Shown piece by piece: positions 8,667-59,103 of a stretch of DNA of 64,000 nucleotides (position 1 is the first letter of the stretch; each line of letters starts with the position of its first letter). The notes under the pieces were generated by a model, which was not told the DNA's origin, searched no databases, and saw only the letters and a list, made by a program, of their open reading frames with translations. The stretch comes from Zymoseptoria tritici IPO323 (lineage: Eukaryota > Ascomycota > Dothideomycetes > Mycosphaerellales > Mycosphaerellaceae): the NCBI RefSeq assembly GCF_000219625.1, contig NC_018200.1, positions 124,001 through 188,000 on the forward strand, written 5' to 3'. The translations under genes and the position numbers were made by a program.

Positions 8667-9330
8667 AGTTCTCACTGTGGCCTCAGGCACCCAAGGTCGT
8701 GAGGATGCGAAGATTACGCCCAAGACAACGCCTTCACCTCCCACTCGACTTCGGTGAGATCATCGCCACATCACATCGACCCTCCCACCCGCAGATCCAT
8801 CCTCTCTCTTCCGATACTCCGCATCTCACCCAGCACAGATCGTACGACAGTGGACAGTGCATCCGCAGACTTCCAAATCCTCGCCGCAGGTCGAAGTCGA
8901 TGGGTATCCCGATCACGGCAAGGAGTGCAACCTCGAGTTCTGCGTCGACCTGGTCCAGCATCCCGACACCCCGCGCCGAATACAATGGCGGGGATCGAGC
9001 CGCGAGAGAGAGCGCCTGTGAGGAAGAGGTGTGAGGAAGAGGTGTGAGGAAGAGAGAGTGGTAATGGATGGAGCGAAGCAAGACGAGGAATCGGTGCGGC
9101 GATCGCTTCATTGCAAGGAGGTGTGCACAGAAGTGGGATCAAGTACCACGGCCGAGAGCGACGGCGTTGGACAAGTTGGAGGGGTTGGGCGACCGGAGAG
9201 ATGCGCTCGATGGAATGGAGATACCTAACATCCCCTCTCTCTGCCCTTTGTCTATACAGAATAAAGCTCCCTTGCAAAAAAGAAGTACTTCTTCCCGCTC
9301 TTCAACTTCCTTCCAGTGACTATAGCTTCG

Positions 9331-10150: not shown

Positions 10151-10555
10151 GTAGCTGATAAGAAGTTTTCGTCGAGTCGAGATTGGTGCCTGAGGCCAGA
10201 CTCCCCCGCTTCAATCCGGACCCCTCTCACACTCTCTCTCTCGAATTAATCACCTCCGCGATTCAATCCCCCACCACACCGGAGACACCGCGCCTGACCC
10301 TAAAGGCAACGTCAACAACCGGCCACCAATGTCATGTCGGCCGCCAGTGTCACGGACACATCTGCCACGCCGACCAACGTCTCGTCATCTCCTCATCCCG
10401 ATCTGAACGCGCCCCGAGTCCGACCGAGAGAGCTCGTTTCCTGAACCTGCCTCATCCTTTTTCAACATGCCTCATCCTTCTTCATCAAGGCATTCTTCCA
10501 GGATCACGGTTCTGCACGCCGCAGCACGTCGGTTCCGATCCGTGATGACAGTACC

Positions 10556-34498: not shown

Positions 34499-34531
34499 AG
34501 GAGGAGGAGGAGGAGGAGGAGGAGGAGGAGG
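34499..34531 (+). repeat. (GGA)n microsatellite
   Basis: An uninterrupted AGG/GGA run of about 11 copies. Confidence 0.95.
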
Positions 34532-37222: not shown

Positions 37223-37285
37223 GTGCCTGAGGCAGAGACCAAAACGGTCGTCAAAAGTTGACGACCGTTCCTATCGATCAGGCAC
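37223..37285. repeat. Palindromic element P1
   Basis: Nested inverted repeat. The outer arms are GTGCCTGA (37223-37230) and TCAGGCAC (37278-37285). The inner arms are AACGGTCGTCAA (37243-37254) and TTGACGACCGTT (37258-37269), separated by three bases. It carries TGCCTGAGGCAG next to the outer arm. It resembles a small non-autonomous element; related copies are listed below. Confidence 0.9.
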
Positions 37286-37738
37286 CTAAGCAGACAAAAG
37301 ATGAGCGCATTCTTTGCGCTGTTAACTAAGGATTCGACTTGTCATTACGCAGCCTGCGCGGCTGTCTGTCATGTTTCTTTCCGGTCCCGCCAACGGTCGA
37401 CTGCGACTCCTCGCACTGTCTCGATTATTCCATTCCGGGGTTGACACTCCTGCGAGCCAATACAAGGCCGAATGACATGAGCGCCATCCGCCTTCTCTTG
37501 TGCAGTGCTCGTCTCGATGGTTGGCCCAAGGCATTGATGACTGGTGCGTGTGAATCGTCTGGCTGCGCGCAACATAACGATGCGCGCCGGCAACAAGCAG
37601 GCGAGGGAGAGCAAGGGAGAGGAAGCAGCAAGAGTTGGACGTTCTCTTCAGAGTATTTAGTTCGGCGGCGAAGCATCAAGATGGAGCAAATTGTAGTTGC
37701 GAGGAAGAAGACTTGTACGTTGCTTGATACACTGCATA

Positions 37739-37817
37739 TGCCTGAGGCAGAAACAGAAACGGGCGTCAACTTTTGACGCCTATTCCTGGTACCTACCCGT
37801 TTTAGTTGACGCCCGTT
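37739..37817. repeat. Palindromic element P2
   Basis: Begins TGCCTGAGGCAGAAAC (37739-37754). GGCGTCAA (37762-37769) and TTGACGCC (37773-37780) form a hairpin with a three-base loop. A second, longer inverted match joins AACGGGCGTCAAC (37758-37770) to GTTGACGCCCGTT (37805-37817). Same design as P1, 0.5 kb away. Confidence 0.9.
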
Positions 37818-37854
37818 CAGAGCAGAGGTCGAATTCGATCTTCTTCATTCTCGT

Positions 37855-38556
37855 GTGCATCTCTTCACTGCTAGTCCAACACGGCGGCGACGAGATGGCA
37901 GTAAGGTAAGACTCCTCTCCGCTCTTAACAATCTCGTCATGGTCCACATACTCGTGCTCATCCTCACCAGCGACACAGCATCGCATACTGGCATACTGGG
38001 GTACTGGCATCCTCTGCGACTGCGTCTTCCTCATGCATGCACAACTCGACGAAGACTGCTTGCTCGAGAATGGAATGCTGCGGTCATAGTTGTTGACATA
38101 CTGCTCCTGTTCAGGGAGAAGAGAGGTAGGTCCAACGAAGACTCCGCAGGAACAAACGAACAAGTCAAGTCTCGAAGAGAACACCACCCGCGGTCGCGGA
38201 CCTCCGTTACCTTTGCTAATGGAATTCGACCTTCGAGGCCTACCCGCTGCATCACAGCCTTTCCGTCACAGACCAGATCATCGCCATTCTACTATCCTTC
38301 CCGTACAAGGAAACCCGAGAGTACTACGACGAGCGACCGACATGTCCGACATACGCTTCTACTTCCACAGCTTGTTTACTGCGATGCGGTCTGTCCGCGA
38401 CATCAAGCCGACGAACTTCCTCTACTCGCCCTTGTAGCAAAAGGGAGTGCTTGTCGACTTCAGATTAGCAAAGCGGAAAAGTGCGGATCGGAGATGCTCC
38501 TGACCGCGCCGAGAAGATCAACTCGCCGGTCTATGCTTCAGCCAAAGTTGCCTTAA
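37855..38556 (+). other. Ambiguous open frame
   Basis: 234 open codons on the plus strand, just above chance length, basic and Thr/Ser/Arg-rich with no hydrophobic core. Antisense frames are open in parts. Nothing recognised. Confidence 0.18.
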
Positions 38557-38869
38557 GGCACCGCCATTAAACTCCGTCCTATGTCCCTTTTTCCCCCTTA
38601 CCGGTCCATGTCGCTAGCGACAATTCAAGGCCCTCAAGCCGCGTTACTACCGATGCCTCGACCGCGATAGCTCCTCCTGCAGAGCCTTTGATCGAATTGC
38701 CTGCATTTTAGGAGCACCAGCATAGTGCGCAGGAGTATGGATTGTAAGAACGTGAGCGACAATCGGTAGTCACAACTGCAGCACTTTACGCTAAAGTCTA
38801 CTTCGTCTTCCTCCTCTATCCTCCTCCTCTATCTGCCTCCTCTATTCCTCTGCTCCTCCACGGCTGATC

Positions 38870-40400
38870 TTGTACGTCTACGGCTGGTCGTTGCCGGCGA
38901 GCTACGCTAGCAATTTCGGGTCTTCTTACGACCGTTATCCACCGTCAGTATACCGACCAAGCAGATTCAGAAGACACGTCCGGCGCCAGCGCCGGCTATT
39001 ACCAACCCGCGCCTGACTTAATACTAGCGTTAGGGGCAGACTCTTTGTCTTCGAGGCGTGAGTTGTCCACGTTTCCCTTAGCTCGTAGAGTAGACCCAGT
39101 CCACCTCCCTTGCAGCTTAGCAAAACCGAATCGGGTTCTTCCGCAAGAGTCTATGGAGTTCTCGAAAAGAGACAGACGGCATATCGTATAGTCCGATCGA
39201 CGAATGAAGAGGGCCCAATTGTAGCGGGGTTAGTCCTGTTACGAGCAGACATCCGGGCCGCGCTTAAGAGGTAGGCAAGATTACCTGCACGAGTAGGACT
39301 CCGAACAAAGGCGACGTTCTAATAACCGGCTCGACAAAGGCAGCTCTAATGCTCGGATTCGGTTAGTTAGCTATAGAGATAGGAATCGGTGGCTGTTATT
39401 AGTTAGTAGAAGCAACGTAGCAGAGAGGCAAAAGATTCGTCCTGGTGCGAAGGTCGGTCTGTAGGCGAAGCAACTATTCGATAGATTAGCAGTGCTAACA
39501 GCTCGTTAACGGCGCTACCTCCACCGAGAATGCCCCTCGAGCACTGAACGGAACTACCAGGACGGTCCATGACCCGCGACACACCTCTTCCGTCCGATGT
39601 GCCATTAATTAGCACAACCGCGACACACCTCTTTTGTCCGACTTACGATTAATCGGCACGACCGCAACATACCTCTTCCGTCTTGCTATCAGTTAGCAAC
39701 ACTACCTATGGCGGCGCAAGCCCCTCCTACCGCACTCCAGTCTCATTTACTACGCCGAACACAGCCTCGCCTATGAAATGTACTGATCTAGAAAACCATA
39801 TGGTCGACGCTATTAGCATTCCAGATCTGCGACGAACTCTCGACCCACCAAGGAAGCGAGCCAAATCACTCCGGCGTTACGACCGAATCCGAGCCGGAGG
39901 ACGACAGGACATCCCGCTGCTCTGCTAGAACGCCTAAGATCTGCACGACCTACCGTGAACCGGCTTCTCCGGCGCGGGAAGCACATACCTGCCGACTCTA
40001 ATCCGATTCGCGGTCCTATCTCGAAAGCCTAGCAAATTACTCCCGCCAGTTCTAACGTCGACGGCTGGTCGTGCTAGCCTCTCCAACTCAGCCGGGACAA
40101 ACACCGGACACTTCTCGCAGACATCCATGCGTCTTTCCACCGGGTCGTCGGATTTTGAATTGCCTCTAATTCCTGTGCTCGCTTTGCTCCTTAATGAACG
40201 AAGCACGGGCGAAAAAAGCGTCCCTTGTTCTATTAGGCTGACTCTGAAGCTGGGACATCTCCGTCTGCCGCTTAGGCATGGTGCTCTTAGCCACCCTCTT
40301 CTTGTCTCGCCGCTCCCTCTTTCCTTTGACCTGGGGTTTTGCGGCTAAGCTTGGCCCATTCTTCGCGAGCGCACTATTAAGCCGAGACGGGGAGGAAGAA
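38870..40400. pseudogene. Second decayed coding-like block
   Basis: Stops TAG and TAA are frequent, yet protein-like stretches persist. Examples on the plus strand: about 39130-39268 (RIVRSTNEEGPIVAGLVLLR) and 39683-40348, a single frame with three stops (SMRLSTGSSDFELPLIPVLA). On the minus strand about 40300-40160 reads MPKRQTEMSQLQSQPNRTRD. The strand is unresolved. Like the 24-28 kb block it is probably an old mobile-element copy. The class is unknown. Confidence 0.32.
39575..39700 (+). repeat. 44-bp tandem repeat, about three copies
   Basis: CGCGACACACCTCTTCCGTC... starts at 39575, 39619 and 39663 with 70-85% identity. Because 44 is not a multiple of three, the expansion must have broken any reading frame crossing it. 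Confidence 0.92.
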
Positions 40401-43400
40401 TCTTCACGAGCGGAGCGGGACTTAATGGAACGGAGAGCATAAGAGCGAGTGTGTACACTAATTAAGAGGAGATGCCTAGGTGGTTTGTCGGATGGATGTC
40501 TAATGTGTCTATGTCTCTAGTCCTAATCCAAAGCCCGAGGAGCAGCATCTGACCACATCTCGCCGAGCTGAGGCGCAACTTGTGAATGCTTACTATCTCG
40601 GAGGTTGAGAGGTTTTTTCCACGACCAACTTAGGAAAGCCGAGAGCACGCGATCGGGCTTTTCTTCTATACTTTCTGTTGCACACGTCTACTATTCGGAG
40701 TGAGGTTTACCAGTGCAACCCGCTTATGCCAGTCGGCATGGAGAGAAATTCTCTCACGTCGAGCACTGTCACGCCCACCCCGCCCTCTTAATCCAAGTCT
40801 CGACTAGCTGTGACCCGACCTGGTTCCATCTTCGTGGTTGCGTCTCTGGCCCGCTTCCACCATACCCTATGCTACAGCTCATCCAGCCGGATATGCGTGC
40901 GAGTGCGGCTTCCTCTTAAAGACCTACAGAACAGGACAGAGCAGCGCAGAGCAGGGCACATTCAAGAGCATGGCACTTAAGGACAACCGTGTCGTCTCGG
41001 CTCGTCTCCTTAGTCCACCCCTTTCCCAACGACCTTATCGCCGGCGGCACGACCGCCGCTTTCGATGTTGCCTTCTAGTGCAGTCTAGTCCAATGCTGCA
41101 CCTTGCTGTGGGCACTGGCCTCTGCACGGCGACGGCGGCGGGGATCTGGCTGCCTTCATGGGAGGTGTGCCTCATCGTCCAATCGTCAGTTCTATCTTTA
41201 TTAGGTAGGGCGCTGACGCAGCAATGGCCTGGACCAAAACATGGAACTACTCCAGTCCTTCTTATGTAAGCCCTCTTCTTCTTCTTCTCCGACTGGAACA
41301 TCTCAACAGTGTTGCAGTGTCGCAATCTCTCGCCTCCTCTCGCCTCCTCTCAGAGTCAGCTAGTAGGTCCGTCGTCTTTCCGCCTTCCTCTCCAGCAATC
41401 GTGGCTCTGCAGGCGACTGCGACCTTTCTCGGACTTCAGATTTTGGCTACACATCGACAACACCGTCGTGTATAGTACGTAGTCGACCAACCTTTCCAGC
41501 TGCGATCCGTAATATTCCTTGGCACCTCAACTCCACCATCGACCCTAACTTCGCCTCGAACCCCGACTTCACATACTACCACGATCTCACCTACGATTTC
41601 GGCTTACTCAATCATGCAGCGAAAATGGCTCCACTCAGTTGCCCGGGGTTGGAGAGGGGAGTGCTCGAGTCGAAGCGGAGAGTGAGCATCGCGAGCAAAC
41701 TCAATGCGAAGGGCAGCGGGACTTGAATTGGCACGATGATTGGTCATGGACGACGGGTAAGCGACGAACAATACCTGGCTGTTTTCGGTCGAATACTTGC
41801 CTCTTACTGGAAGAGTCCGTGGAATCGAATACTGCATGGTGAGAAGGGGGCCATGCGGTCCGTGTCCATGGGCCGAAGACTGGCTCGATCTATCCCTGTT
41901 GCTTCCTCGGCATGCTCGCATTCCCTCGCCAACTCTCGCAGACGACTTACGGCAAACGGTACAAAGAGTGATGTACGCATGTAGACTGGATAGATACATA
42001 GGTATACATTGCATCGCATCGCGAGATAGACGCATGGATGAATGTATGCATGCATGCATTAGGTGCACGATGCAGCATCCTTGTCGCTCGATGCTAGAAG
42101 AGGGAGTGAGATGCATATAGGTGTACTTCCCGAACAATAGCGGTGACGCAGGTGCATACGGCAGGGTTGATGTGTATTGCGTGGGCAAAAAATTGATCGT
42201 GTCGAAAAAAAAAGGGGGAAAAGTGGTTGATCTGGCCTGGCAACAAGGCCAACCGACTGCCTCTACACACGAGACAACCGACGCCGAACTTCCAAAGGGC
42301 GAACCAAATCCTCCAAGTGTGCACGCAATCGACGCCATCGCGATGCGCTCAAAACGCTCTCCGATCCTGTCCACAAACGCCTTTCACTACAGTCCCCCTC
42401 AAGCCGCGTAGGCATTTTGCCGGCCAACGCCTTTTACTAGTCTTCTCCCGGATCCCCTGCCGGCGAGTCTGCAACGCCCACGAGAGCTTGTGCAGCGATG
42501 ACATGCCACAGGATTGCCTGACCGGCCACGAGCCAAGTGATCGCCGGGGACACCTCGTCGCCAGCCTCTCCATCCCAGTACACACCACCTACCTCCCTGC
42601 CACGGCCAACCTCGCGATCCTTCCGCCTCCAAGCAGTGCTTTGCTGACAATTCAGCCGCGAACCCGATGATCTTGTCTGATATGCCAACGGCATACTCTT
42701 GCCAACTACTGTGTCCCACCGTCGATCTGGTTCTGCCAAGTCTGCAACAGCGGACTACACTTGGCAGGAAGGCCAGCGGCGTGCAGCTCGTGTGCGGATG
42801 GATCGCCGGATGGCTGAGGGGTAGGTTGAGGGAAGAAGGGGGCTGGCAGGACCGGAAGGGACGGTTCGACGACATCGCCAGCCGACAGAGGAGCCGGCGC
42901 TGGCTACTGTTGCCGGCTTGGTAGGGCCGACCGGCGATCTTGGTTGCCAGCTTTGATCGTAGGAAAGTGTCGTTGGTCCTTTTATCAGGGTTAAGGAGCA
43001 CCAACCTGCTCGATTCTGGGCGACTTTCCGTTGACGATTACGTCGCTCCATTACTATTGCGAGCCGTGACATGGTGGCGTACGCATCTTGTGCACACGGC
43101 GTGACTCCATGCGCTTGAGAAGTGTACCCAGCTGTGGGAGGGCTTGGGCAATAAGGCACTCGAGAGGCTTTTCCTTGTCCGCTTCAATAGCTGCTCGCAT
43201 CGCCGGTGCGAAGGTGTTGCACTCGGCCGGATGTGCAAAACAGCATGGTGGAAGATGGGGTGTAGAGTGGGGACTGACGGCTCGGAGGTAGGCCATTGAA
43301 CAGATGAATCCAGTCGCTGCAATGTCGTGAGACGCCACGCTCTGCGAGTTGACGCAGTGATGCCACGGCGAAAGTTCTGGAAACACTATCATTCGGCGCT

Positions 43401-44840
43401 TGCACCTTGCTACGTGCATGGCAGTGAATGCCAGCTTGCCGTGGCAAGGTCTGCAATAGTCGGCCTGAGAGGTAGACGTTCATCGTTTGGACAAAGTTCC
43501 AGCGCCGTAGATTGGCCGGGGTTGTTAGCTTCCTATGCAAGTCGAGTTGCAGCGATTGAGGCAATCGTGCGATAACGTGACGAGGTATCGAGGTAACTTT
43601 CAAACGAGGTCGCAGCACGCAGCGACGAAATCGAGCTCGACATGCTGTTTGTTTGGATTAGTGGTTGTACGGCTGCGTAGTGATGACAGATCGATCGGCT
43701 GGGTTTGCGGATCAAGCTGGCCGCCCGGGTGGGTGAAGGGTGGTGGCACATTGACTTGGTGACGGCGATCGTAGTACTCATCGAGCCGAAGACGCTGGCA
43801 GGGAATCAGTAACGATTGAGGTGGTGGTAATGAATGTATAGCGGTGGAGGGCCGGCTTGTCTCCGCGGCTGGTCATGCCGGTGATGGCTGCAGACTCTAC
43901 CAGATCTGAGAGGCCAGAGGAGACAAGGGAGTCTAGGGACTGTCGCAATAGACCTTCTTTTCCCGTGATTGCACGCGAACAGGGCTGTTCTGCGAATGTC
44001 GCGCTCATCAACGCCTTTCTCCTCGGCTGCACGCACTGCAGGTCCGCGGCCGAAGTGAGTCTTCTTGCTGCGTTGTCGATGATGCCAACCTCTTCGAACG
44101 CCTGGCCGATCCGTTTGCATTGCCTAGAGTGTCCGTGTCCCTGGTCGCTTGTGCTAAGCGGCTGGAAACAGGGCCAGGGCATACCAGAAAGTGAAGGATA
44201 TGTTGGTGGTCGCCGGTTTATCCATTATACCATGTCACAAGCTGAGCGGAGACGAGGAGCATTCCAAAAGCTACAACAGTAGCTTACTACTGATCCTCAA
44301 GGCCCAGCAGTCGAGCTTCACCGCCCGTGCGTACAACGCTATGTGAAATCGACTGGTCCATCCTCTCCTTCTTCTTTCACTCTCGTTGTGCCCTGACCCT
44401 CAACTCAAGCTCCCTCTTCCCGCCATCCCATCCTCTCATCTCTGCCAATTGTGCCTCCGTTCCTCTCCGATCCCATCTTTATCACATTCGGTACCGGACA
44501 GAGCATGACGGCTCCCGTCGAATTCAAGCATGAACCGTAGTCGACTATCGCCGGCTCCGTCGTTGTCGCTGTAGTGGTTGCCGTAGCAAATTCGATGGGT
44601 GTAGGGTAACAAGATCAGGGAGCGGAGCCTGGTAGCGCTGACCAGGACGGAGGAGACGCCGACAACAATGGCGGAGAAGAGGTCTAGATCTGGCTGTCAG
44701 TCGTGGAGAAGGAGGGATGATCTCTCGAAGCTGGTCCGATCAGGTCATGCCAGGTGTTGGTCGATGCTGTAGTATTGTAGGAGAGGCAGTCCAATCCTCG
44801 GCATCTTGATTGGTTGTGAGCCATCTTTGATGCCGGCGCT
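40400..44840. other. No supported gene
   Basis: Both strands carry overlapping open frames, the longest being minus-strand 41604-42374 (256 codons) and 42399-43004 (201 codons). Neither has clear protein features, and antisense frames of similar length exist. A TGCATGCATGCAT run lies at about 42046-42058 and an A-run at 42207-42215. I cannot support a gene here. Confidence 0.3.
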
Positions 44841-44849
44841 GAAACTTTC

Positions 44850-44881
44850 CGTGTCGTGTCGTGTCGTGTCGTGTCGTGTCG
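44850..44881 (+). repeat. (GTGTC)n microsatellite
   Basis: Six copies of the pentamer, just upstream of palindromic element P3. Confidence 0.95.
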
Positions 44882-44925
44882 GTGTTTGGTTTGGGAATTG
44901 GGAATGTGCAGTTTGGGCGTTTAGG

Positions 44926-44940
44926 CGTCAAAGGTTGACG
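44926..44940. repeat. Palindromic element P3 (core only)
   Basis: CGTCAA AGG TTGACG: the same inverted core with a three-base loop as P1 and P2, followed by ACC as in the 57 kb array. The TGCCTNAGGCA part is absent nearby. Confidence 0.7.
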
Positions 44941-47800
44941 ACCATTTGGGGTGGTCCGTCAAGATGTCTGATGATGATATCGTTACCTACCATTCCTCTC
45001 AACCAGCCTCCTCCACCCCCTCATTCTCCTGGTCGGCTTCCGGCGCATGCGTCTCGTGCTACCGCCGCTGCTACTCCTCCTCCGCCAGCGCCCTCGCCAA
45101 CTCCCCATCCGCCCTCGCCCGTCCTCTTACCCGACTTCTGCCTCCCTCTTCGCTGCGTGGAGCCGAGAACAAAACGCATGGACAGAGAACATACGGCAGA
45201 TGGATACTTTGCAGGGTGCAGGATGGGTGGTCGGTCTGGCTTCGTCGAGGGTAGAGTCGGGGATGGATGTTTTTGGATGTCCTGGAGGCAGCGCAGTGCA
45301 GTGCGGTGCAGGGCAGTATAGTGTAGGGCAGTGGATGCGATGTCGTTGTCGTTGGTCATCGGACAGTGGAGATTCTCAAAGGACACAAAAAACCAACTAC
45401 GCCCGTCGCACTGGAAGGGAATCATGCCAGCATTGTTCTGCCACACGTTTTCGAACCCTCTCATCTGCTCCAAAGTGCTCGGATCGAACATGTCCCTGGA
45501 GTGGAGCATAACAAGATGTCTATTCTTGCATCGCGAGGAACTAACAACGTGTTCCAATATGCCTTTACATCTGCTCAGCAACGTCCACGTTCGATCGAAG
45601 CGTCAAGGTGGCCGCCCTTTCCAGCTTCATGCAAAGCTTCAAGCCGCTGGGCTCATACTCGGGTGCTGGAAGAAGAGCTTACTAACATCCAGCCGACATT
45701 GGCCTCCTGAGTGGAAAATCAGCATTCGCCATCCCTTCGACTTCCATATTTTGACCTTCCGATTGAACAGAAACACGCACCTCCGCAAGCATTGGTGGCA
45801 GCAATCGTCACCGGGCATCGATCGTGGCTGGACGTTGGCACATCGTCTGCGGGCGCTTGGCCGAGCGTAGCAGCGAGGCGGTGTGACTTCCCAGGCAGCA
45901 GTACAAAGCATGCGCACGATAGCGAAGCGAGCCGAGCGGATGCCGTACCGGTAGCCAGAGCCTTGAAGACACCGGAATCATGTTCTTGAAGACGCTGCAA
46001 ATCGCTACATACAGCGGATGAAGCCGTTGATAGAGCGGAAGCGATGAGTACTCGAGGGGCATGCTCAGGGAACGACTTGTCACCGTGAGCTGGCGGCTCA
46101 AGGGTCCTGGCATCGTCGTCTGTGAGCCGGCGTGTACATCTGCGGCGGGACATATGATCGCTCAGGCTTCGGACTCTCGAATCGTCTCATACATCGTGTT
46201 GCACTGCGGATGCCAATGGAGCGCTATGCGGAGTTCTTGCGCTGCACATCGCTCGTCATTGTAAGAGGTGATGCTTTGGCATTTCCTATGATGATCAGTT
46301 TGACTGTCGAACACGTCCTCTAAAGACGAGAACGGGACCTGGGCAGTACCGCATGCATGTCGTAGTTCGATGTGACCTCCTGCTGGAGAGGCTGGCTGCT
46401 CGCTTAGGCCGTTGAGTACCACTTTCTCGTTATGCTCCGTGGTGACTTTTTGCGCAGAGCGCACTTCCAAGAAGATACGAGGCATGTCTGGTTGTACAAT
46501 CCGTCACAAGCAAATGCGGTGGCATTATGCTTCGAGGTACATGATTTGAAGCAGAGGTCTTAGCTCGGAGGGATGCAGCTCCGATTGTCTTCACTTCCTC
46601 ACTGCTTCTCCTCAACATGAACTCGCAAACAACGACAACCTCATCCTCATCATCATCACCATCGACGAAGTCCACCATGGCAAGATACGACCTTCGTCCG
46701 AGGTACTCTCCCAGGCACGAAGCAGTGCAGGTCGACTACGCCCCGAATGCGCTCGCTGGCAACAGGCTCCACAGCCGCAGCTACGGAAACATGGCATGAA
46801 GTTTTTGAATGTAGCACGACAGGAGATAGCTGATGTATGCTGTGAAGTGCAAGGGCACGAGAACGTGAAAGGTTGTGAAGCTTTGAATGTGTTTGAGGCA
46901 AAGCACTGTCACGATGGGTATTCAGGGTTGCCTCTCGTTGAACAGGTGCCCAATGTCTTGAAACCAATCCCAAAGTTATTCACAAAAGCTCAAAGTCCCA
47001 GTCAAGATATCCCGCCTCCGCGTTATCACCAGGACACGGTCGGAAGCACTCCGTGACGGTGTACAGCGCTCTCTTGCCCCGAGAACGAGGGTGCGGCAGA
47101 TGCGGGATGAAATTTTTGTACTCGTCAACGAAGTGAACCGCCTTCATCTCCGTTGCGCTGGTTGTGAACAACTTGCAGCATTTCAAAAGAGCGCTGATCG
47201 AAGACCGAGGACGGTGGATTCGTGCCTTCGGGTCGTTCTTGATAGAACGAGCATGGAGAGAGCGTTCGACGTCCGGGCCGCATTATATAAGTGACGATGC
47301 GAGGATTGAATTGTGGGATGGCAGATGTTCTTGTTGAAACCCGTAGATTCGTCGTGTGCAGGCGCCAAGGTTGCGGAATCTCCGTTCGTTGTGTGAGGTC
47401 CTGGAGATTGCAGTGGACAGGCGTGGCCCGGATCGCTCGGGGGATGAAGCTCGCGGTATCAATGGTATGCGACGAGATGTCTCGAGTGAGCCAAGCCAGG
47501 CTCGTGATCGGCTGCATGCCAGTACTGTTCATGGACGGCTCCAATCCATGTGTCGCCTCCAAGTTTGCGGCATTCGTTCTCGATGCAGCTCGCTCGGAGT
47601 AAAGCTTGCTGATCTTCAGCTGAGCTGGTACTGTGAAAGATGAGAGCGCTCAAGTGAGCAAGTGGCCCAGAGGAATATCGCGGTATCCAACGAGATCTCT
47701 TGATTTGACTGGACCGTGCTTGTGGATGGGCTCATCTCGATGCCGTGGTTGAACAGCACCAAGCTCCGCTGTAACGCTCGTTCGTGGTTATCAGACGCGC
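44941..47800. other. Unresolved, several competing frames
   Basis: At 45021-45581 the minus strand reads GMIPFQCDGRSWFFVSFENL, while the plus strand at 45366-45710 reads ALEGNHASIVLPHVFEPSHL. Both look protein-like. A pentamer-rich GCAGT tract lies at 45290-45335. I cannot decide the strand and make no gene call. Confidence 0.25.
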
Positions 47801-47845
47801 GCACTGCAGGAAGGCTGCCTCGGGCCGGAATGCTGATTGAAGAAA

Positions 47846-48870
47846 CTACTGATCCCTTAACCCTTTCTTCTCTTGACTCCGATCAAGGCGCAGCGCTCGT
47901 CGAGCACTTGGAAACAGTAATGACCTTGGCGACCGCGCTGTCTGTCCGAACCGGACGAGACGGAGCAAGCTGGCGATGCCGAACGACCCTCGCAGTCGAG
48001 GAGTGAGTTCCGAGGTGGATGAGCCCGCGAGGGGAGTAACAACTGCGTAGCTTCGTCGCATAGCCTTTGATGGTACTGCAGTTGTTCTAATGTCATGGGG
48101 GGCGTAGCTGTGGCGTTGCGCCGCTTCGCGTATGATCTGTTGGCCCACAGGAGGTTGCCGGGCCCATGCAACAATTGAAGGAGTAAGCTGACCCAAGGCC
48201 TTGCATGTCCGTTTGCAAGCTGCGCCGTCCGGAAGAAGCTCGCAACTTTCCATCCCCGTAGTAGCACAACCTTGATGCACGCCTTGCTCACTCATTGGGC
48301 GCTTCGCTGCGTCTTCATCGCGGAATGCTCGCAAAAAGCCGGTAGTCGTGTGATGGATCCTTGACAGGGTTCCAATTTGAGAGGTTGGTTTCATGGAGTT
48401 TGATCTGTATCGAATCGCTCTGCGGCGTTCTCGTTTTCTGTTTTGCTCAGGTCCACATCTCTCCGGCTCTTCATGCAGCAGCTGACCGTTTCGCCCTGAC
48501 TCATCACGTGGAACATGGCCGTTTGGCAAGATGCCCTTTGTTCTCCGCACACCAATCTCTTTGTCAAATATCCAAGCATGTCATCGACGCTGCGGCCGTC
48601 TCCCTCCTCGTCGCCTGCTTCCTCCGCATTGTCCTCCTCCTCCAACTGCTTGTAACTTCAGCGCCTCTCGAGCGGATTGGCGAGACCCATTGGCTTCTTT
48701 TGCTTCTTGTCCACTTTCTCGTCGTCTGAGTCGAGTTCGGGCCTGGTCAATCTGACCTCAAAAACACCTTCGAGTAGGTTCTTTGATGTTCCCGATGCTC
48801 GTTGTTCGCGTGAACAGGATGCTCTTCCCGATGCTCGTCGTTGCTGTGTGGAATAGGTGGGCCACTGGTC
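47846..48870 (-). pseudogene. Frame-broken gene with acidic N-terminal part
   Basis: From about 48820 the minus strand reads NLLEGVFEVRLTRPELDSDD, a Lys-rich stretch and PMGLANPLERR. It crosses one TGA (48660-48658) and continues with an acidic helix and DMLGYLTKRLVCGEQRASCQ to a stop at 48391. Beyond that the best frames alternate (48550-47846: FLRAFRDEDAAKRPMSEQGV; 48291-47857: MTLEQLQYHQRLCDEATQLL). An element-family copy, P4, lies just upstream at 48935-48950. One nonsense and one or two frame changes are implied. No family recognised. Confidence 0.33.
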
Positions 48871-48934
48871 GACGTATTACGATTGATGAGATTTCGAGGA
48901 ATGGAGAGTGTGGTCTGTACCGTTTCAAGGTTTC

Positions 48935-48950
48935 GTTTCTGCCTCAGGCA
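48935..48950 (-). repeat. Palindromic element P4 (partial)
   Basis: GTTTCTGCCTCAGGCA, the reverse complement of TGCCTGAGGCAGAAAC found in P2. It is followed on the minus strand by GAAACC, as P2 is by AGAAAC. The GTCAA hairpin is not preserved. Confidence 0.75.
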
Positions 48951-48995
48951 TGAACATCTCGACGAGAGACGTCGTGACATCCAATGTCTCACCAC

Positions 48996-50322
48996 CCCTG
49001 AACAACGCTCAACATCACAACATCACAACATCACCAGGGCAATCAAGGTCCTGTGAAGCCCACGTGATCCAAGCTGTTCAATGCAATGCAAGATTATCAG
49101 CAAGCCAGCACGGCATCGGTACGGCCACCCAGCCAGGCATGGACAGACATGCATTCGCGCAACAAAACATCTAGGAACTCTCAGCAGCGAACTCACGCGG
49201 CATTCAATTGGCAACCTCACGATTTTACCCAACTGTAATGCTGGAACATGCGCAGTTGCAGCGACCCCACAGGCCCTCCATCGCGACTTTCAGATCATCC
49301 ATTCCGGCAAGAGATCCGTCCAGTCCAGCGTCTGGACTCCTTCTCCATCTTCAAGGCCAACACATAACGCCGCGAAGCCGGTGCTGTCAGCTCGAACCGG
49401 AGTCGATCTGCTATCGGTCTGGGTAAGTTTACTCCGGCTGCTTTCCGACAACATGCTTGTTGCACCTGAGTTGACGCTCTCATTGTGGCCGCAAGTAAAT
49501 ACGCGATCCGGACCGATGCAGTCGACCTTCGCTCCTATCAAGGAATGTAGGGGATGCGGACAACGTTCCCTGGACTCCATTCAACGCCATGGTTAATTCT
49601 ACAGCCGCAGCCAATCTGCTGATGCATAGCGTTGCGGCGATAGAGCTCAGGGCAACCTTGCGGCCATCAAAAAGCCTCTACAGTCTCTCAACCAGCAGGC
49701 GATGAGTATGTCGATCTCGCACGATTCAGTCGCCTGCGTAGGCGGCGAAACTTGTTGTCGACCGAGGACATAGCAAGAGACAAGAGCGCGAACGCCTGCA
49801 ACCGCAGTGCCGGTGTCACTTTGGCTCAGCACTGGCTGGCGGCGACGATTCGGCATTCCTGCAAGAGGACACCTACTCATTTCGTGTTGCGACCGGCACT
49901 TGCTCCGTTCGTTCACGTCCGGCGTCGTCGCTACAATGGCCACGAAAGAACTTCCTCGACACTTGTTTACGACACCCTCCGGATGTAGCGCAGTTACAAA
50001 TTGTCGACTGTTTACTTGGCTCGGCCTGCGATTCCCTCCCACCCTACGTTTGGATGTACAAATGGACTTACGGAATTCAGCGCTGAAAGGTGCCAGCTGC
50101 GAGGAGTCTTTCGCAGCCGGACCAGACGAAAGACATGTCTGAGTACCTTGCTCTCTGCGAGTGTGTCACTGCGAGTCAGAAGTTGAACTTCACAACAACT
50201 GCTTCTGGGTCACCTCTACCATGTCCCTGGCAGGACCCCAGCACACACGTTGATCAACGCAAGACAATCAACCTAACGATGATCGAGCTTCACCACACAC
50301 TCGTCGGTGGTCTCTCTACGTA
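48996..50322. other. No supported gene
   Basis: Open frames of 60-171 codons on the plus strand and up to 131 on the minus strand overlap without a clear winner. Confidence 0.3.
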
Positions 50323-51136
50323 ATGGCATCGCTATACGTTGTCTGCCCGCAGTGTCCTCTTGCTGGATTAAGTCGACTTCCGCCCGGCATTCGTCTGGAA
50401 TGCAGTTGTACTAGTACTCAGCATCAACGCCCGCCCTTCGGATCTGTGACGCATGCACGGACTCTTGCAACTTTTGCTGCGCATCGAGATCCGGCCACAC
50501 CCCCCGATCATGGTGAATTCGCACAGCCTACGCGCCCAGGACTCTGCCCCCTTTCGCCGAGCAGGCTCGAAATTGGCCCTGCACATATTCTCCGGCTGGC
50601 GCATGGCACTGCGAAGCTCTCGAGCAGTCAGAGGATAGAAGAGTGCCACGACTTGGCAGCAAGTTGTCTCGAGACACTTGCGTCCCACTTTACACCAACC
50701 ACGCGAATGCACCATAGTCCAGGATTATTCCGTCTTCCACAGAGTTCAACGCCCTTCGACCTCGAGAAACTCATGTCAAACCCCTGCAACACCGAGAAAC
50801 CTCCAACACCCTCCATTACCAAGACGATGCCCTGGAGAAGCCGTCGCACCAGGATCGCACAGCAAGATTTCAACCTCATTGGCAACACAACTTCTGGAAG
50901 TGGCTGCGGAAGCTTGTGGCCTGCTGCCTTGTCGCCTTCTTTATATGGTTGCTCTTCCCACCACGCCTGAGCACATCGACGATCTTGTCAAAGCCACCTA
51001 CTATATAGCCTCTGCCCTCGAAGAGCTGAAGAACAACGCCGCCTTGCGTGCACACACTCGAGCATCCGCCTGCAAGCTTATTGAAATCTCGGCAGAACGC
51101 TACCGCGGCCCGTGTTCCCACGCCGTTTTCCGTTAA
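50323..51136 (+). CDS. Candidate gene with possible membrane segment, unknown product
   Basis: Starts at the ATG 50323 and reads 215 codons containing MHHSPGLFRLPQSSTPFDLE and MPWRSRRTRIAQQDFNLIGN. Near 50890 a shifted frame gives NFWKWLRKLVACCLVAFFIW followed by LLFPP, a good single membrane helix preceded by basic residues. A third frame then gives PEHIDDLVKATYYIASALEE and ASACKLIEISAERYRG to a stop at 51136. A basic cytoplasmic head, one membrane anchor and a helical tail would make a type II membrane protein, if the frames are joined by introns or errors. Family not identified. Confidence 0.32.
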
Positions 51137-51393
51137 GCCTGGGCGCCGGCGCACGACAATTCATGATGGTGCTGTCCTCCGCCTCCCTGGGTAAAAGACC
51201 CATACAAATATCCCCGCTTCGACACGCCGGTAGACGAGGACCTGGGCAATCATGGCGTAGAATCCGCGGAGGAGATGTGGTATGTCCAGCCTCTCCTCCT
51301 CTTACTCGCATTGTCAAGAACTGACACTACCTTTCCCACGACAGGAACATTACCCTTATTATCCTCCAGTCCTCCTCCGCTTCCTGCGCCGCT

Positions 51394-52321
51394 ATGCAAA
51401 AAGCCGCCCACGGCGCTTCGCAGATCCAAAGCCTCGCCGTCCGCTCCATCGTCTGCCGCAATGCCCGCACGTATACTCTTCCCTGGCCTATGACGACCTC
51501 TAACCATCCTAGTCCGCTTATGCTCCTTAACTACCAACTCTCCCAGTTCAACTCCACCGTCGCCGCTCTCGCCACACTCCAATCCTCGCTCCTCCCCCAG
51601 CTAGCAGACAGCACAAACCTCTTTGGAGTCCGCTTTGCCAGCTTTACGTCCGCTTTGACAAAACACAAACTCAATCAGCAGCGCGGCCAGGATGTATATC
51701 GCTACTTCTAAGCGGGTTTCAAGGCGTGTTCCGACCCGAGGAAAGCGATCCCGGGCACCCCAACGAAAGGACCAGTGTGTGGCGAGAGGGAGAACACAAC
51801 GGGCCGACGAAGCTGAAAACGGCCTCTGACAATGCACTGTCCATTTTAAAGGACCCAACGTTGGCCAGCCAGACGGGTAGATGGCGGAGCCAAGTGGATT
51901 GATTATGCGCCTTCTTTCACCAGCTTCTCGGGCTGGGGATGGCTTTCCCGGTTTGGGAGGGGGACACGAGGAGGAAGGGAGGCGGCTCGAGGTTGGAGAC
52001 GCCGATGTTGGGTGCTGGAGCAGAGGTACGGCGACGACTGGGGGCACGATGAAGATGACGAGGTGCCACCGGGATTGGAGGTGGACGGATTGGAAGGAGA
52101 TCGGCCGCCGGAGACGCTACGGCAGGTTGTCCGCCGGATGGAGAGAGCGGCAGAGCAGGCGGGGTCGGTGTTGCTGGGGGCTCGATAATCTCTCAGATGG
52201 CTCGACGTCGACGTGGAAGATTCGTTGCAGAAGCGAGGAAAGGCTGCCAGAGTCTCGAGCACGATCTTCTTTTGGAAGAAGGGACGATGACAGGACATTA
52301 ATATTCAAGCGTCGGAGATGA
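51394..52321 (+). CDS. Candidate gene segments, unknown product
   Basis: 51394-51711 reads an amphipathic stretch (LMLLNYQLSQFNSTVAALAT, TNLFGVRFASFTSALTKHKL). Further on, a frame around 52020-52190 reads EQRYGDDWGHDEDDEVPPGL and LRQVVRRMERAAEQAGSVLL before a TAA. The pieces lie on the same strand as 50323-51136 and could be 3' exons of it. Exon boundaries were not resolved. Confidence 0.27.
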
Positions 52322-52503
52322 AAACTGTTCGTGCCATCCTAAGTATATGGGCATTTCAAAACGATTGTCGAAGATCTTTGTTTTTTCCATTCGCTGACTG
52401 ACGCTTTTCAAAACATCCGCGCAACCCATCCTGCCGTTCTCAAGCACTTCGTCAAACGAACATCATATACCTCTCTGCCACATCGGGCAGAACCGATCAC
52501 AAG

Positions 52504-52940
52504 GTGGGGGAGTCTTCTACTGAACGGCCCAAACATTTCCGCCGACCCTCCTTTTCGAGAATCATCACCGCCCGCGACGCTACGTCAGTACGGTCGGGCT
52601 ATGCATCGCAAAGTCCTTGGCTGTACCTCTACCCTCACTCTCACTCGCCACCACGAACCCGACACGAACCTCTTCACGGCCAGATCTGTCTACAACTCTC
52701 CACGGCCGGCCCCGGATCCGGACATCCTCTCCGGCTTGCAGGGCGTGCGGCGGTTCATCGGAATTTGGACTTGTCCATCCGCTTGACAGTCCAGCATCGT
52801 TGATCACGTCATCTTGTTGGTGCTTTAATCTCTCCTCTCCGCTTTCTGGTTGGGTTCCGCTTCTAGGATCGATCCTGCTTGAAGCCGCGGCTTTGGCACG
52901 AAGGGTGTTTCTGCGACGACGGTACGATAAATCTAAGATG
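52504..52940. other. Ambiguous stretch between candidate genes
   Basis: Both strands are open for about 75-120 codons (minus 52807-52580 begins MINDAGLSSGWTSPNSDEPP). No decision is possible by eye. Confidence 0.2.
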
Positions 52941-52945
52941 AGGAG

Positions 52946-53906
52946 TTGGGCTTTCTTAGTAGAGAAGTTTGGTTGGAATTAGTTAGATTGGGCGAGGAGG
53001 GGAAGTGTCCATGGCAGAGGACGAGGATGAAGCCATTCAAGGTAGCAGGTGAAACAGGTGAAGCCGATAAAGCACATGAGACTGGTGAAGTCCGACTGCT
53101 CCACATCGAACCGGATTCAAAACTGATACGCAGTATTTCGTGGGGGTTGGTGGCGGCGAAGATGGAGACGAACAACGACGATGATGATGCAGACGAGGAC
53201 TTTTTGCGTGGTGTCAAGGCTCCACAGTGTCAGCATGGTCGACTCCCGTTGGGATGTCTTCGTCGATCCCTCATCTTCGCGTCACGGCTATGGTGTTGGT
53301 GTTTGCACCCCGAGGTGTGAAAACGAGGGTGACGTGCGGGATGCGAAGGAAGACCTGCTGCTATTTGGTGACATGGGATGGGACGTTGGCCACTCTCCCC
53401 CGCCTCGTCCTTTTCCTTTCCTACCCGAGCGAACCTCAAGCACGACGGCAGTTGAGATAATCCGGCTTAACGGTGATGGTCCGTACGAGACAAAGGTGAG
53501 GCCTTTTGCGGAGTCGGCGTCAGGGTAAAGTCCGCGTCCAGAAGGTTGTTCTCGATCGAGCCTCGAAACTACCGCCGTAGATCCCAACCTGCCGCCCGGC
53601 GTCTCCGAGCTAACGAACATGTGAACTTCTAACATCGAGGACATGGATATCGGTGGCCTAGGCGTACGCAACGGCGCTCGCGGCGTAGATGCTCTACGTG
53701 GAACTACTACGGTCTCACCAGACTTCGACGATGGTGAGGCTGAGGACTTTGGCGAACACCGTGTAGCTGCTGCCCAGGGTGGCAACGAATCGTTCGTTGC
53801 GGCTGGTGGTAAGGACGAGGTTGAGGAGGAAGTCGGTAAGGATGGCTGGGAGGATATCGACGATGAGGCTGCAGCTGGAGCAGGTGGAATGAGCAGCCTC
53901 TTTTGA
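52946..53906 (+). pseudogene. Acidic-tailed protein gene, broken or spliced
   Basis: 52946-53230 reads LGEEGKCPWQRTRMKPFKVA and an Asp run (DDDDADEDFLRGVKAP). From about 53235 the frame starting at 53181 takes over (VDSRWDVFVDPSSSRHGYGV; AKEDLLLFGDMGWDVGHSPP) and runs to 53906 with only two stops, TAA 53526 and TGA 53623. It ends in an acidic tail (EVEEEVGKDGWEDIDDEAAA). The stops are flanked by GTAAAG at 53525 and CTAAC branch-like sites at about 53610 and 53630, so an intron is likely, though the obvious acceptor does not preserve frame. The overlapping 275-codon minus-strand frame is taken as its shadow. Confidence 0.35.
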
Positions 53907-53925
53907 ACGTAGGAGGAGAAGGCTG

Positions 53926-54225
53926 TTGTGGCGAAGACGGTGGTGCTGCATGTCTGCATGTAAACGCATGTCGCGCCAGAGCAATAAGTCTGTCGTGTCA
54001 GAACAACAACTCCTTTGTAAGCGTGCTGGCCGGAAGCGTGACAAGCAGCGAGCGCTGCAGAATCGAAATGCGATACCAGTCGGAACGGGGAGTTCATTGG
54101 GCTCGCGGATAGCACAGCTCTCGATGTTTGGCATTAGTAGAACTAATATGCCTCTCGATCATCCGTGCCCGAACTCCGCTGGTGCCAGACCAAAAACCTC
54201 GTGCCAGAACAAAAACCTTGGCTAA
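53926..54225 (+). CDS. Basic coding-like tail, unknown product
   Basis: 99 open codons with a strongly basic segment (KRAGRKRDKQRALQNRNAIP). It is reminiscent of the basic half of a DNA-binding region, but no leucine zipper follows. It lies 20 bases downstream of the acidic-tailed candidate and on the same strand, so it could be another exon. Confidence 0.22.
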   Translation: MWRRRWCCMSACKRMSRQSNKSVVSEQQLLCKRAGRKRDKQRALQNRNAIPVGTGSSLGSRIAQLSMFGISRTNMPLDHPCPNSAGARPKTSCQNKNLG

Positions 54226-55740
54226 AACGCTGAAACGACGTCGTGAAGTGAAGTCGGCTAGGGAGTAAAGTGTTGGCTATTGTGATAAGTTTCGACAATG
54301 GAAAGAAAACCGAGTCGTCGGGTGATGAACCTGCATCCGTTGTCCGGAGTGTCGTCTTCTCTGGAATGCCAAGATGATCCTTGTCTTTGAAGAAGTTCTC
54401 ACGCTCGGTGCTATTTCCGCCGCGCTGCTTGCACCAGCTCATCTCGGTGTTGAGACACCTTGACTAGCAGAGTTCCCGCCGCACCAGACACACTGGGCGT
54501 TAGTCTCGCCCTCATTCTCCTCGGATCTCGGAAAGCCGCAACCTACGAAATTAAACAACGAGGTACATTTTCAGGCGGGTTATGAGATGAATCGTCAGAC
54601 CGCTGCTGCTGCGACTGCTCACTACTAACCGATCTGTCGAGCTCTGATGCCTCAAACAGCCTGCAGGCGTAGCACACGTCGCGGCGGTCCATCTCCGCCT
54701 GCTCATGGATGTACGTGCTGCTAATCGCGGTTGTAGGGTAGGATTTTACGCAGAGGTAGTAGGAAGGGAGGGAGAGGGGAGAGAGAGGGAAGAGACAGGG
54801 GACGGAGAGAGGAGAGAGCGAGGCACGGAGATAGAAGGATAGAAACGGTATAAAGGGAAGTAGAGAGACGAGTTTGGCGGAATCTTTTGCTCCTCCTATA
54901 GATCGCCAAAGCACGCTTCGCAAGGTACAAAAGGACGTAGATTGGCATACTTGAGATTGGCAGCATCGTTCCCGGACTCCCTATACACTGCTCCCGCAAG
55001 CGCATGCGCCACGGAATTGGAGGACTCTGTGGGTTGGTGCGTGATTATAACGGTAGTTCGGTTGTCTGCTGTGGAGGTCGTGCCTTTCGCTTTAATGATC
55101 GGTAAAGGTCCCGCGGGTGTGGCCATTTGAGCTAGAAACGGAGACTGCGGCGGTCGCAGGGCGAGACTTCGACGACGAAAAGGTGCTGCGCAGGTGGTCG
55201 CTGCAGCCGCGAGACACAGCGCCTCGCCAATTTGACAGGAGCTGGGAGCTTAATCTCAGGGTGATGACGGTCGCGCGAAGGCCAAAGCAAAACACCGAGC
55301 TGCGTAGTGATGGCGAGAAAAGGCCATGGCGTCGAGAAAGCTGACGATAGACGCATGATCAATGCTGAGGTCAGCTATTAAAGCTTGGATAAGGTGGAGT
55401 TCGTGGGGTCTCCAGATCCGAGGTCTTTGAAATGCAGGACGCATACGAGGCGGTGCTTACTAGTGATGGTCCGTCTGCACACCATCCGTTGAGGGTGTTA
55501 CTGCAACCGAGCATGCTTGCGACTCCTTGCTCTCCTCGCTTCCCGTGGCAGTGGGCGTAAGGGGTTTTCGAGTCCGCACGGCGGCGTGGGTAGCCAGAGC
55601 GAGTTGTCGTAATGTCCGAGTCGACTGAAAAGTGAGGCGCGTTCTCGGCGGATGTCGTGTCTAGGAAGTGAGGCGCTGTATTAGTGTGTGTTGTGTCTTC
55701 GTCCTCATCTGTCAGCTAGGATAATAAGAGGAGCTTCTCG
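54226..55740. other. No supported gene; purine-rich tract
   Basis: 54755-54845 is a GA-rich, strand-asymmetric tract (GGGAGAGGGGAGAGAGAGGG...). Its antisense gives Leu/Ser/Pro-rich open frames that should not be taken as proteins. The rest shows only short frames. Confidence 0.35.
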
Positions 55741-55746
55741 ACACGA

Positions 55747-56866
55747 TCACGCTGGGTGGGACGGGAGGGAGGGTATTGCAATCTGGACCTCGATTGCAAG
55801 CGGATCATCCGCCCTCGCCCCATGTTCGCGATGATCGCCGCCGAGAGATAATACGCTCCATCTATATCTGAACCTCCACTCCTCTGCTTCACCGCCCATT
55901 CCACCTGATGCCACCTGCTTCGCCCACGCCTTTGTCCTCCTCCTACCTCTTCCGATCATCGTTGACTCCACCACTTTTGGTAGTTCTTCTCTCCAGCCGA
56001 TGGCTCGCCTCCTCACTTCCGTCCCGCTTCCGACCTTCCCTGTTCAGCGTCTCTTCCTCGCGGCCCTCCTTCGGACCGTCTTCCTTCCGCACATTCGCGC
56101 ATCCCCGACGATCAGCCCGCGTGTTCGGCCTGGGCGAGCAGAATCGATTGGGACAGTTGTGTATGGTGCAGAAGACCCTTGTCGCTGGCCGCTGGTCGTA
56201 CCGGGGTCCGTGATGGCTGAAAGAGAATTGCGATGCCTTGTGCGGGTGGGTGGAATGAAAGAAGCAGTGTACCCTCTTCAACTCGTGTCTTTTCGATGAG
56301 CTTGCGCGCGCAGCTGCTCGGCGCATGCGCTTGCCAGGGTGTGCAGCTCGACGGCGGATGACGCTCCAGATGAGTCGCCTAGGGAAGCGACGTTGGAAAT
56401 GCCGCCGGAGATGTGGACTGCATCTTCGAATTGGAGACTGAAGGTCCATGTGTGTATGTCCATGGCCGAGAATCGTAATCCAGCGCCCAAGGTAGGGTAG
56501 TACAGGTGTCCAAGCTCTTCACCCTGATCTGCTGGGCTTGAACTACATCAAGGACCCTTCTTGCTTCATTCCTCCGAGTCTCGCTTGCCATTGATTATGC
56601 CGCATTGCACCGGGACCGGGGTAGGAATCTTGACTTTCAAGCCTGAGCTTGCCGATGGCCCTGCCGAAAAGGTAGTCGCTGCCGAGCCGAGCGGTCGGGA
56701 ATCGGCGCGATCTTGATCCTAGGTGTCTGCATTGGCGGATCTTTCGGCGGAGGGTGGACTCGACAAATCTGCCCTGCGATTGGAGACAGTGCAGGGAAAA
56801 TGTTGCACGAGTAGGATCTGATGAGGTGTGGTGTTGGCAATGAGTGCTCGAGTATGAGAGAACCAA
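55747..56866 (-). pseudogene. Frame-broken candidate gene, unknown product
   Basis: Minus-strand pieces in order: about 56720-56543 (LGSDYLFGRAIGKLRLESQD), about 56530-56278 (GLRFSAMDIHTWTFSLQFED; SSAVELHTLASACAEQLRAQ), 56449-55943 in another frame (basic and Glu-rich tail, RKEDGPKEGREEETLNREGR) and 56016-55747 (TMIGRGRRRTKAWAKQVASG). The pieces overlap by design of the frames; true joins are unresolved. The plus strand gives only Ser/Pro/Leu-rich shadows here. Confidence 0.3.
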
Positions 56867-56928
56867 TGCTCGCGTGCCTTACGGGTAATGGAGGTCGTCA
56901 ACTCGTGGAGTTCCGGTCGTGACGGGGA

Positions 56929-57305
56929 AAGTTGACGCCGGCGAGGAAAGGTGACGCCGGCGAGGAAAGGTGACGCCGGCGAGGAAGGTTGACACCCGGC
57001 GAGGAAGGTTGACACCCGGCGAGGAAAAGGAAAGTTGACGACCGGCGAGGAAAGTTGACGACCGGCGAGGAAAGTTGACGACCGGCGAGGAAAGTTGACG
57101 ACCGGCGAGGAAAGTTGACGACCGGCGAGGAAAGTTGACGACCGGCGAGGAAAGTTGACGACCGGCGAGGAAAGTTGACGACCGGCCATGAAAGTTGATG
57201 ACCGGCGAGGAAAGTTGATGACCGGCCATGAAAGTTGACGACCGGCCATGAAAGCTGTCGACCGGCCGGAAAAGGTTAACGACCGGCCGGAAAAGGTTGA
57301 CGTCG
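56929..57305. repeat. 20-bp minisatellite, 19 units (AAAGTTGACGACCGGCGAGG)
   Basis: Nineteen contiguous units of 19-21 bases with no unique spacers. The central eight or so are identical. Left-hand units are GTGACGCCGG and GTTGACACCC variants; right-hand units carry CCGGCCATG and CCGGCCGG variants. The array ends GGTTGACGTCGACCTGCCTTAGGCAGAAAC, which contains the dispersed element motif. Antisense translation gives a 20-residue repeat (open frame 57249-56719), a by-product of the period. Confidence 0.97.
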
Positions 57306-57307
57306 AC

Positions 57308-57324
57308 CTGCCTTAGGCAGAAAC
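57308..57324 (+). repeat. Palindromic element P5
   Basis: CTGCCTTAGGCAGAAAC, a perfect CTGCCT/AGGCAG palindrome plus the AAAC tail of P2, joined directly to the right end of the minisatellite. Confidence 0.85.
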
Positions 57325-58988: not shown

Positions 58989-59103
58989 ATAGAGTCAGAT
59001 CATTGCGGAAAAGACCAGCTTTCATGCCTGAGGCCAGTCATGAACAGCTTTCATGTTGTCGAAAGCAGGGAGCTTTACTCCCTGGATTCGAGTGGGTGCC
59101 TAA

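What the first reader, a model, noticed from the sequence alone, without database searches (positions are those of the whole stretch)
37223..57324. Dispersed palindrome family: TGCCTNAGGC plus GTCAA-nnn-TTGAC hairpin
TGCCTGAGGC, a 10-mer expected about 0.1 times in 64 kb on both strands, occurs at 10187, 37224, 37739, 48941 (minus) and 59025, with CTGCCTTAGGCAG at 57308. P2, P4 and P5 share the AAAC tail. P1, P2 and P3 share an inverted GTCAA/TTGAC core with a three-base loop, and in P1 the whole is nested in outer 8-bp arms. This looks like a small non-autonomous or structure-defined element that I cannot place in any known family.
Basis: seen in the sequence. Interest (0 to 1): 0.8.

Follow-up and report, generated by a model that had tools for sequence, protein, structure and literature searches.

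The report
Accessory-chromosome palindromes, probable promoter modules
Two short mirror-image DNA words in a wheat-pathogen fungus look like paired docking sites for gene-switch proteins; one is a common fungal promoter word, while the other occurs almost only on the dispensable chromosomes, hinting that these chromosomes may have their own gene-control signal.

Summary
The two palindromes are different things. Palindrome A (TGCCTNAGGCA) is genome-wide: 213 TGCCTSAGGCA sites against 4 for the reversed control. It matches a promoter motif reported in Aspergillus, CCTNAGG / CTGCCTGAGGCA, assigned there to an SltA homolog. Palindrome B (consensus AACGGKCGTCAA-NNN-TTGACGMCCGTT) is the new part. 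Its core CGTCAANNNTTGACG has 22 places, 21 on accessory chromosomes, which make up 11.6% of the genome. The 3-bp spacer is strongly preferred there (14 of 19 listed places). B and A co-occur: 11 of 21 accessory B sites have CCTNAGG within 100 bp, against 4.2% of random window positions. Two of six loci of an accessory-only ORF family carry full A+B modules just upstream of the ATG; a third has A plus a B half-site. Related copies have different ends, so a transposon is unlikely. Best reading: composite promoter modules bound by two dimeric proteins, B being nearly private to accessory chromosomes. Binding and activity are inferred, not shown.

The parts
37224..37234 (.). Palindrome A (TGCCTGAGGCA)
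37243..37269 (.). Palindrome B, perfect 27-bp form with 3-bp spacer; centre 27 bp from the centre of A
37278..37285 (.). Outer arm TCAGGCAC (extra AGGCA half-site), partner of GTGCCTGA 37223-37230
37739..37749 (.). Palindrome A with GAAAC tail
37758..37784 (.). Palindrome B; centre 27 bp from the centre of A
37804..37817 (+). Right half of a second B palindrome; 41 bp present in the C17 and C15 copies are missing here
37715..37922 (+). Segment with partial copies at C17:205,469-205,694 and, in two pieces, C15:534,859-535,017
37895..37910 (+). Putative first exon ATGGCAGTAAG and splice donor GTAAG, identical in the C17 copy, not shared by C15; no gene model tested
44920..44946 (.). Palindrome B without CCTNAGG within 100 bp
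48940..48950 (.). Palindrome A with AAAC tail on the minus strand, no B half-site within 60 bp
56926..57287 (+). 20-bp tandem array (about 18 copies) carrying the B half-site GTTGACGACC
57309..57319 (.). Palindrome A (TGCCTTAGGCA) with GAAAC tail, beside the half-site array
10187..10196 (+). Partial A (10-mer only)
59025..59034 (+). Partial A (10-mer only)
8680..8689 (-).

Best explanation
The motifs are composite cis-regulatory (promoter) modules. Palindrome A is an inverted AGGCA pair of the kind known in Aspergillus promoters and probably recruits an SltA/Ace1-type zinc-finger protein. Palindrome B is a 27-bp inverted repeat of the half-site AACGGKCGTCAA with a strongly preferred 3-bp spacer, the geometry expected of a dimeric DNA-binding protein. 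B is used almost only on accessory chromosomes, alone, in tandem, or near A, and probably upstream of genes there. Shown: sequence, spacing preference, chromosome distribution, co-occurrence, and position upstream of some ORFs. Inferred: that proteins bind, that they act on transcription, and which proteins they are.
For: B core: 21 of 22 places on C15, C17, C18, C19, C21, control 1; 16 of 17 clusters accessory, binomial p 2e-14 for an 11.6% share. The lone core site (C7) lacks the extended flanks. Spacer: of 63 places with spacers 0-10, 50 were listed (to C18:405 kb); spacer 3 has 14 accessory and 1 core, all other spacers 5 accessory and 30 core. GGTCGTCAACTTTT: 6 of 6 accessory, three of them in one C18 array. 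GGGCGTCAAAA: 17 of 23 accessory, control 6. ACGGKCGTCAA: 26 of 65 accessory, clustered; the 39 core hits are about what the reversed control (41 genome-wide) predicts. CCTNAGG within 100 bp of 11 of 21 accessory B sites, full TGCCTNAGGCA of 8 of 21, against 4.2% of random window positions for CCTNAGG. A: 213 against 4; known promoter motif. Core A sites avoid ORFs: 3 of 23 lie in ORFs of 150 aa or more, against 43% of random positions. Full modules lie about 70-260 bp upstream of the ATG at two loci of a paralogous ORF family (C17:210k, C21:73k); a third, decayed one (C17:127k) has A plus a half-site about 120 bp before its matched coding stretch.
Against: No gene models, transcripts, footprints or binding data were available. 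Three of six family loci show no such module in the stretch read, including the open C19:439k copy, and the C21:73k copy has an in-frame stop. B clusters are only weakly depleted from ORFs (6 of 17 inside an ORF of 100 aa or more, against 61% of random positions) and weakly enriched upstream of ORF starts (9 of 17 within 300 bp, against 40%). Ten of 21 B sites have no CCTNAGG within 100 bp. The 3-bp spacer is a preference, not a rule, and the other spacers together (41 of 63 places) also exceed the reversed control of 10 for the whole pattern. Genome-wide, CGTCAA within 30 bp before CCTNAGG is only modestly above control (139 against 89); the 100 rows listed all lie on C1-C12, 39 were not listed. 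Some B clusters are duplicates of one another.
Confidence: 0.65

Rival explanations
1. A small non-autonomous transposable element (MITE-like) that carries both palindromes and has spread over accessory chromosomes.
For: Partial copies on C15, C17 and C19 sharing about 160-200 bp; near-restriction of B to accessory chromosomes.
Against: The copies have different ends and no target duplication was seen by eye; by BLAST the B clusters fall into about ten groups that do not share flanks (my grouping; window-against-window matches were not examined); copy number, order and spacing of motifs vary; A is genome-wide in unrelated contexts.
Confidence: 0.1
2. B is a chromosome-maintenance element (replication, segregation or meiotic drive) private to accessory chromosomes.
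For: Near-exclusive accessory location and palindromic, iteron-like arrays. Habig 2018 speculates about replication origins on these chromosomes, and reports chromosome 14, which has no strict B, as the exception to drive (passages).
Against: Chromosome 20 shows strong drive (passages) but has no strict B, only one half-site; C16 has no strict B either. Clusters sit near the promoter motif A and some lie upstream of ORFs. The window B sites lie about 1.8 kb or more outside Cen19.
Confidence: 0.1
3. B is a relic promoter word of a donor species that supplied the accessory chromosomes by hybridization, and may no longer be used in Z. tritici.
For: One accessory chromosome is reported as exchanged between Z. 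tritici and Z. ardabiliae (PMC13059725, abstract); the extended B was not seen on core chromosomes.
Against: Some B sites are intact, near-perfect palindromes, which argues for continued use or recent origin; no donor genome could be searched here.
Confidence: 0.12
4. Chance and local minisatellite-like duplication of short words, without function.
For: Tandem arrays at 56.9-57.3 kb, C15:524k and C21:73k; duplicated segments.
Against: The spacer preference, the separate contexts, the accessory restriction and the co-occurrence with CCTNAGG are not explained.
Confidence: 0.05

Closest known systems
CCTNAGG promoter motif of Aspergillus nidulans (PMC4046813, passages seen)
   Same: Same 7-bp palindromic core; non-coding, upstream tendency
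   Different: Here often the longer TGCCTNAGGCA form, and partly coupled to palindrome B; distances to transcription starts not measured
CTGCCTGAGGCA footprint motif of A. niger, assigned to an SltA homolog and active in synthetic promoters (PMC8419926, passages seen)
   Same: Palindrome A is the same sequence
   Different: No footprint or reporter data in Zymoseptoria; the SltA assignment is not tested here
SltA/Ace1 C2H2 factor site AGGCA (passages of PMC10449517 and PMC11750091)
   Same: A contains two inverted AGGCA half-sites
   Different: The sites described in those passages are single AGGCA; binding to the inverted pair not tested
Transcription-factor sites enriched on accessory chromosomes of Fusarium oxysporum (PMC5140021, passages seen)
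   Same: DNA words enriched on accessory chromosomes, proposed partial transcriptional independence
   Different: The Fusarium motifs are short and occur throughout the genome; B is long, palindromic and nearly exclusive. No cognate factor known

Membership tests
CCTNAGG / CTGCCTGAGGCA promoter element | Sequence match | tested here: met
CCTNAGG / CTGCCTGAGGCA promoter element | Over-represented in the genome | tested here: met
   213 against 4 reversed control
CCTNAGG / CTGCCTGAGGCA promoter element | Lies in non-coding sequence upstream of gene starts | tested here: inconclusive
   Depleted in ORFs, mildly enriched upstream of ORF starts, n = 23 core sites, no gene models
CCTNAGG / CTGCCTGAGGCA promoter element | Drives transcription | not testable with these tools
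   Needs a reporter assay
SltA/Ace1 binding site | AGGCA half-site | tested here: met
   Sequence of A against passages
SltA/Ace1 binding site | Factor encoded in this genome and bound to the site | not tested
MITE / non-autonomous DNA transposon | Copies share defined ends with terminal inverted repeats | tested here: not met
   Ends differ among the C19, C17 and C15 copies
MITE / non-autonomous DNA transposon | Target-site duplication | tested here: inconclusive
   None seen by eye flanking the one shared segment; no formal test, no empty sites available
Accessory-enriched transcription-factor site (as in F. oxysporum) | Enriched on accessory chromosomes | tested here: met
   21 of 22 places
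Accessory-enriched transcription-factor site (as in F. oxysporum) | Known cognate factor | not testable with these tools
   Needs DAP-seq, one-hybrid or binding arrays

The most novel reading that the evidence does not exclude
Z. tritici accessory chromosomes share a private transcriptional signal: palindrome B, read by a dimeric factor possibly encoded on those chromosomes, which together with the common factor at A switches accessory genes as a group independently of the core genome.
Probability: 0.3. Interest if true: 0.75.

Novelty: new variant of a known kind. Interest (0 to 1): 0.5.

Why it matters
Why dispensable chromosomes persist, and whether they regulate their own genes, is an open question in fungal pathogens. 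A DNA word that is nearly exclusive to several different accessory chromosomes, with a preferred dimer-like geometry and frequent placement near a known promoter element, gives a concrete handle: it can be footprinted, its binding protein fished out, and its presence in relatives used to ask where the accessory chromosomes came from.

Tried and rejected
Transposon reading: disfavoured for lack of common ends. Centromere element: the B sites are about 1.8 kb or more outside Cen19. Protein domains in ten ORFs near the sites: no match above Pfam's cut-off. The accessory-only ORF family: two members scanned, no Pfam match above cut-off; no homologue at E 0.001 among 7,989 scored candidates; one of five predicted models fairly confident (mean pLDDT 78, the others 50-53) with no PDB match at E 0.001 or better, so no function is claimed. 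CGTCAA-to-CCTNAGG proximity genome-wide: only modestly above control. Literature string search for B half-sites: 1,382 papers held at least one string; I saw the listing of 30 and opened none of them for this, so it is uninformative. I saw no description of B in the listings of searches, which is weak evidence of absence.

Dropped before counting: nine distinct core A sites in one dispersed repeat family were set aside (23 of 32 kept) and by the same filter; these 32 come and from the 30 loci cut, which cover C1 and C2 only. The lone core B site (C7) was left out of the matrix and of the site counts. In one search the 17 positions are 16 accessory B clusters plus the 57-kb array.

Full report
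IDENTITY. The genome has 39,686,251 bases in 21 contigs, and the window is C19:124,001-188,000. The contig lengths seen in locus listings (C1, C2, C7, C9, C11, C12, C15, C17, C18, C19, C21) equal those printed for Z. tritici IPO323 (PMC4589918, section 6 with Table 1 read); the printed lengths sum to 39,686,251. Chromosomes 14-21 are accessory. Cen19 is 148,227-159,387, window 24,227-35,387.

OBSERVATION.

PALINDROME A. TGCCTSAGGCA occurs 213 times genome-wide, reversed control 4. TGCCTNAGGCAG gives 110 + 94 strand-matches, control 4 + 4, but part of the TGCCTAAGGCAG form belongs to a dispersed repeat: 9 of 32 distinct core sites examined, nearly all from C1 and C2. The other 23 lie in ORFs of 150 aa or more in 3 cases, against 43% of random positions, and within 300 bp upstream of such an ORF start in 8, against 19% (ORFs, not gene models). 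The same word is reported as a promoter motif in A. nidulans (CCTNAGG, about -70 to -120 from the start; passages) and as an accessible-chromatin footprint motif in A. niger, CTGCCTGAGGCA, assigned to an SltA homolog and active in synthetic promoters (passages). SltA/Ace1 bind AGGCA (passages), and A is an inverted AGGCA pair. So A is a known kind of promoter site.

PALINDROME B. CGTCAANNNTTGACG has 22 places, control 1; 21 lie on C15, C17, C18, C19 and C21. They form 17 clusters (joined within 300 bp), 16 accessory, p 2e-14 for an 11.6% share. The symmetric consensus is AACGGKCGTCAA-NNN-TTGACGMCCGTT; the one core site (C7) does not fit the outer part. With spacers of 0 to 10 there are 63 places, control 10, of which 50 are listed: spacer 3 holds 14 accessory and 1 core place, the other spacers together 5 accessory and 30 core. 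GTCGTCAAN{0,30}TTGACGAC has 7 places, control 0; 6 are accessory, five with spacer 3 and one nested longer match. Half-sites cluster on accessory chromosomes but are near control level on the core. A matrix trained without the window finds the three window sites and the 57-kb array in the window, and nothing in 93 kb of core loci.

MODULES. Eleven of 21 accessory B sites have CCTNAGG within 100 bp (8 of 21 the full TGCCTNAGGCA), against 4.2% of random window positions for CCTNAGG; ten of 21 have none. The A-B centre distance is 27 bp at both window modules, at C17:205k and at C17:210k; other distances to the nearest CCTNAGG run from 19 to 97 bp. C21:73k has three A sites at 54-bp steps interleaved with two B sites. 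In the window 3 of 4 full A sites have a B half-site within 60 bp, against 4 of 23 core A sites. The genome-wide half-site proximity test was weaker (139 against 89 control).

NOT AN OBVIOUS TRANSPOSON. The window module at 37.7 kb has partial copies on C17 and C15. C17 and C19 share from GTACGTTGC through the splice-donor-like GTAAG; C15 shares a shorter stretch with other ends; C19 lacks 41 bp that the other two have. By BLAST the remaining clusters share no flanks apart from C15:524k with C17:210k, the C21 group, and the coding match between C17:210k and C21:73k (window-against-window matches were not examined).

GENE CONTEXT. An ORF downstream of the C17:210k module has relatives at five other loci, all on accessory chromosomes (C15, C17 twice, C19, C21; counts are lower bounds). 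Full modules lie upstream of the C17:210k and C21:73k ATGs; at C17:127k A plus a half-site lies about 120 bp before the matched coding stretch; the C19:439k, C15:339k and C17:435k members have none in the stretch read. Four of the six loci have in-frame stops, C21:73k and C17:127k among them. For all B clusters taken together the upstream signal is weak.

MECHANISM. Preferred spacing, inverted symmetry and pairing with a known promoter site are best explained by two dimeric DNA-binding proteins acting at promoters. Binding, regulation and the identity of B's reader are inferred. A role in drive or replication is less likely but not excluded: chromosome 14 lacks strict B and is the reported exception to drive, which fits; chromosome 20 drives without strict B, which does not (passages of PMC6331196). 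An origin by introgression remains open (abstract of PMC13059725).

VERDICT. A is known; B, near-exclusive to accessory chromosomes, is a new variant of a known kind, with the closest precedent in F. oxysporum, where sites of some factors are enriched on accessory chromosomes (passages of PMC5140021).

Noticed in passing
28678-30613: About 30-33% GC block with 115-153 bp tandem repeats inside the published CenH3 region of chromosome 19 (window 24,227-35,387), although that centromere is described as lacking transposable elements.
   Followed up: partly
L063 1501-3552 and L064-L069: Protein family with six loci, all on accessory chromosomes (open copies of about 680-700 aa on C17 and C19, four loci with in-frame stops); no Pfam match above cut-off and no homologue found.
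   Followed up: partly
L009, L012, L024, L028, L031, L033, L035, L037: Dispersed repeat on core chromosomes carrying TGCCTAAGGCAGG within a shared flank, which inflates raw counts of the motif.
   Followed up: partly
L044-L051 (C17:196.7-212.0 kb): Five B clusters within about 12 kb of C17, and three groups of B sites or half-sites (524.1, 529.7, 534.9 kb) within 11 kb of C15.
   Followed up: no
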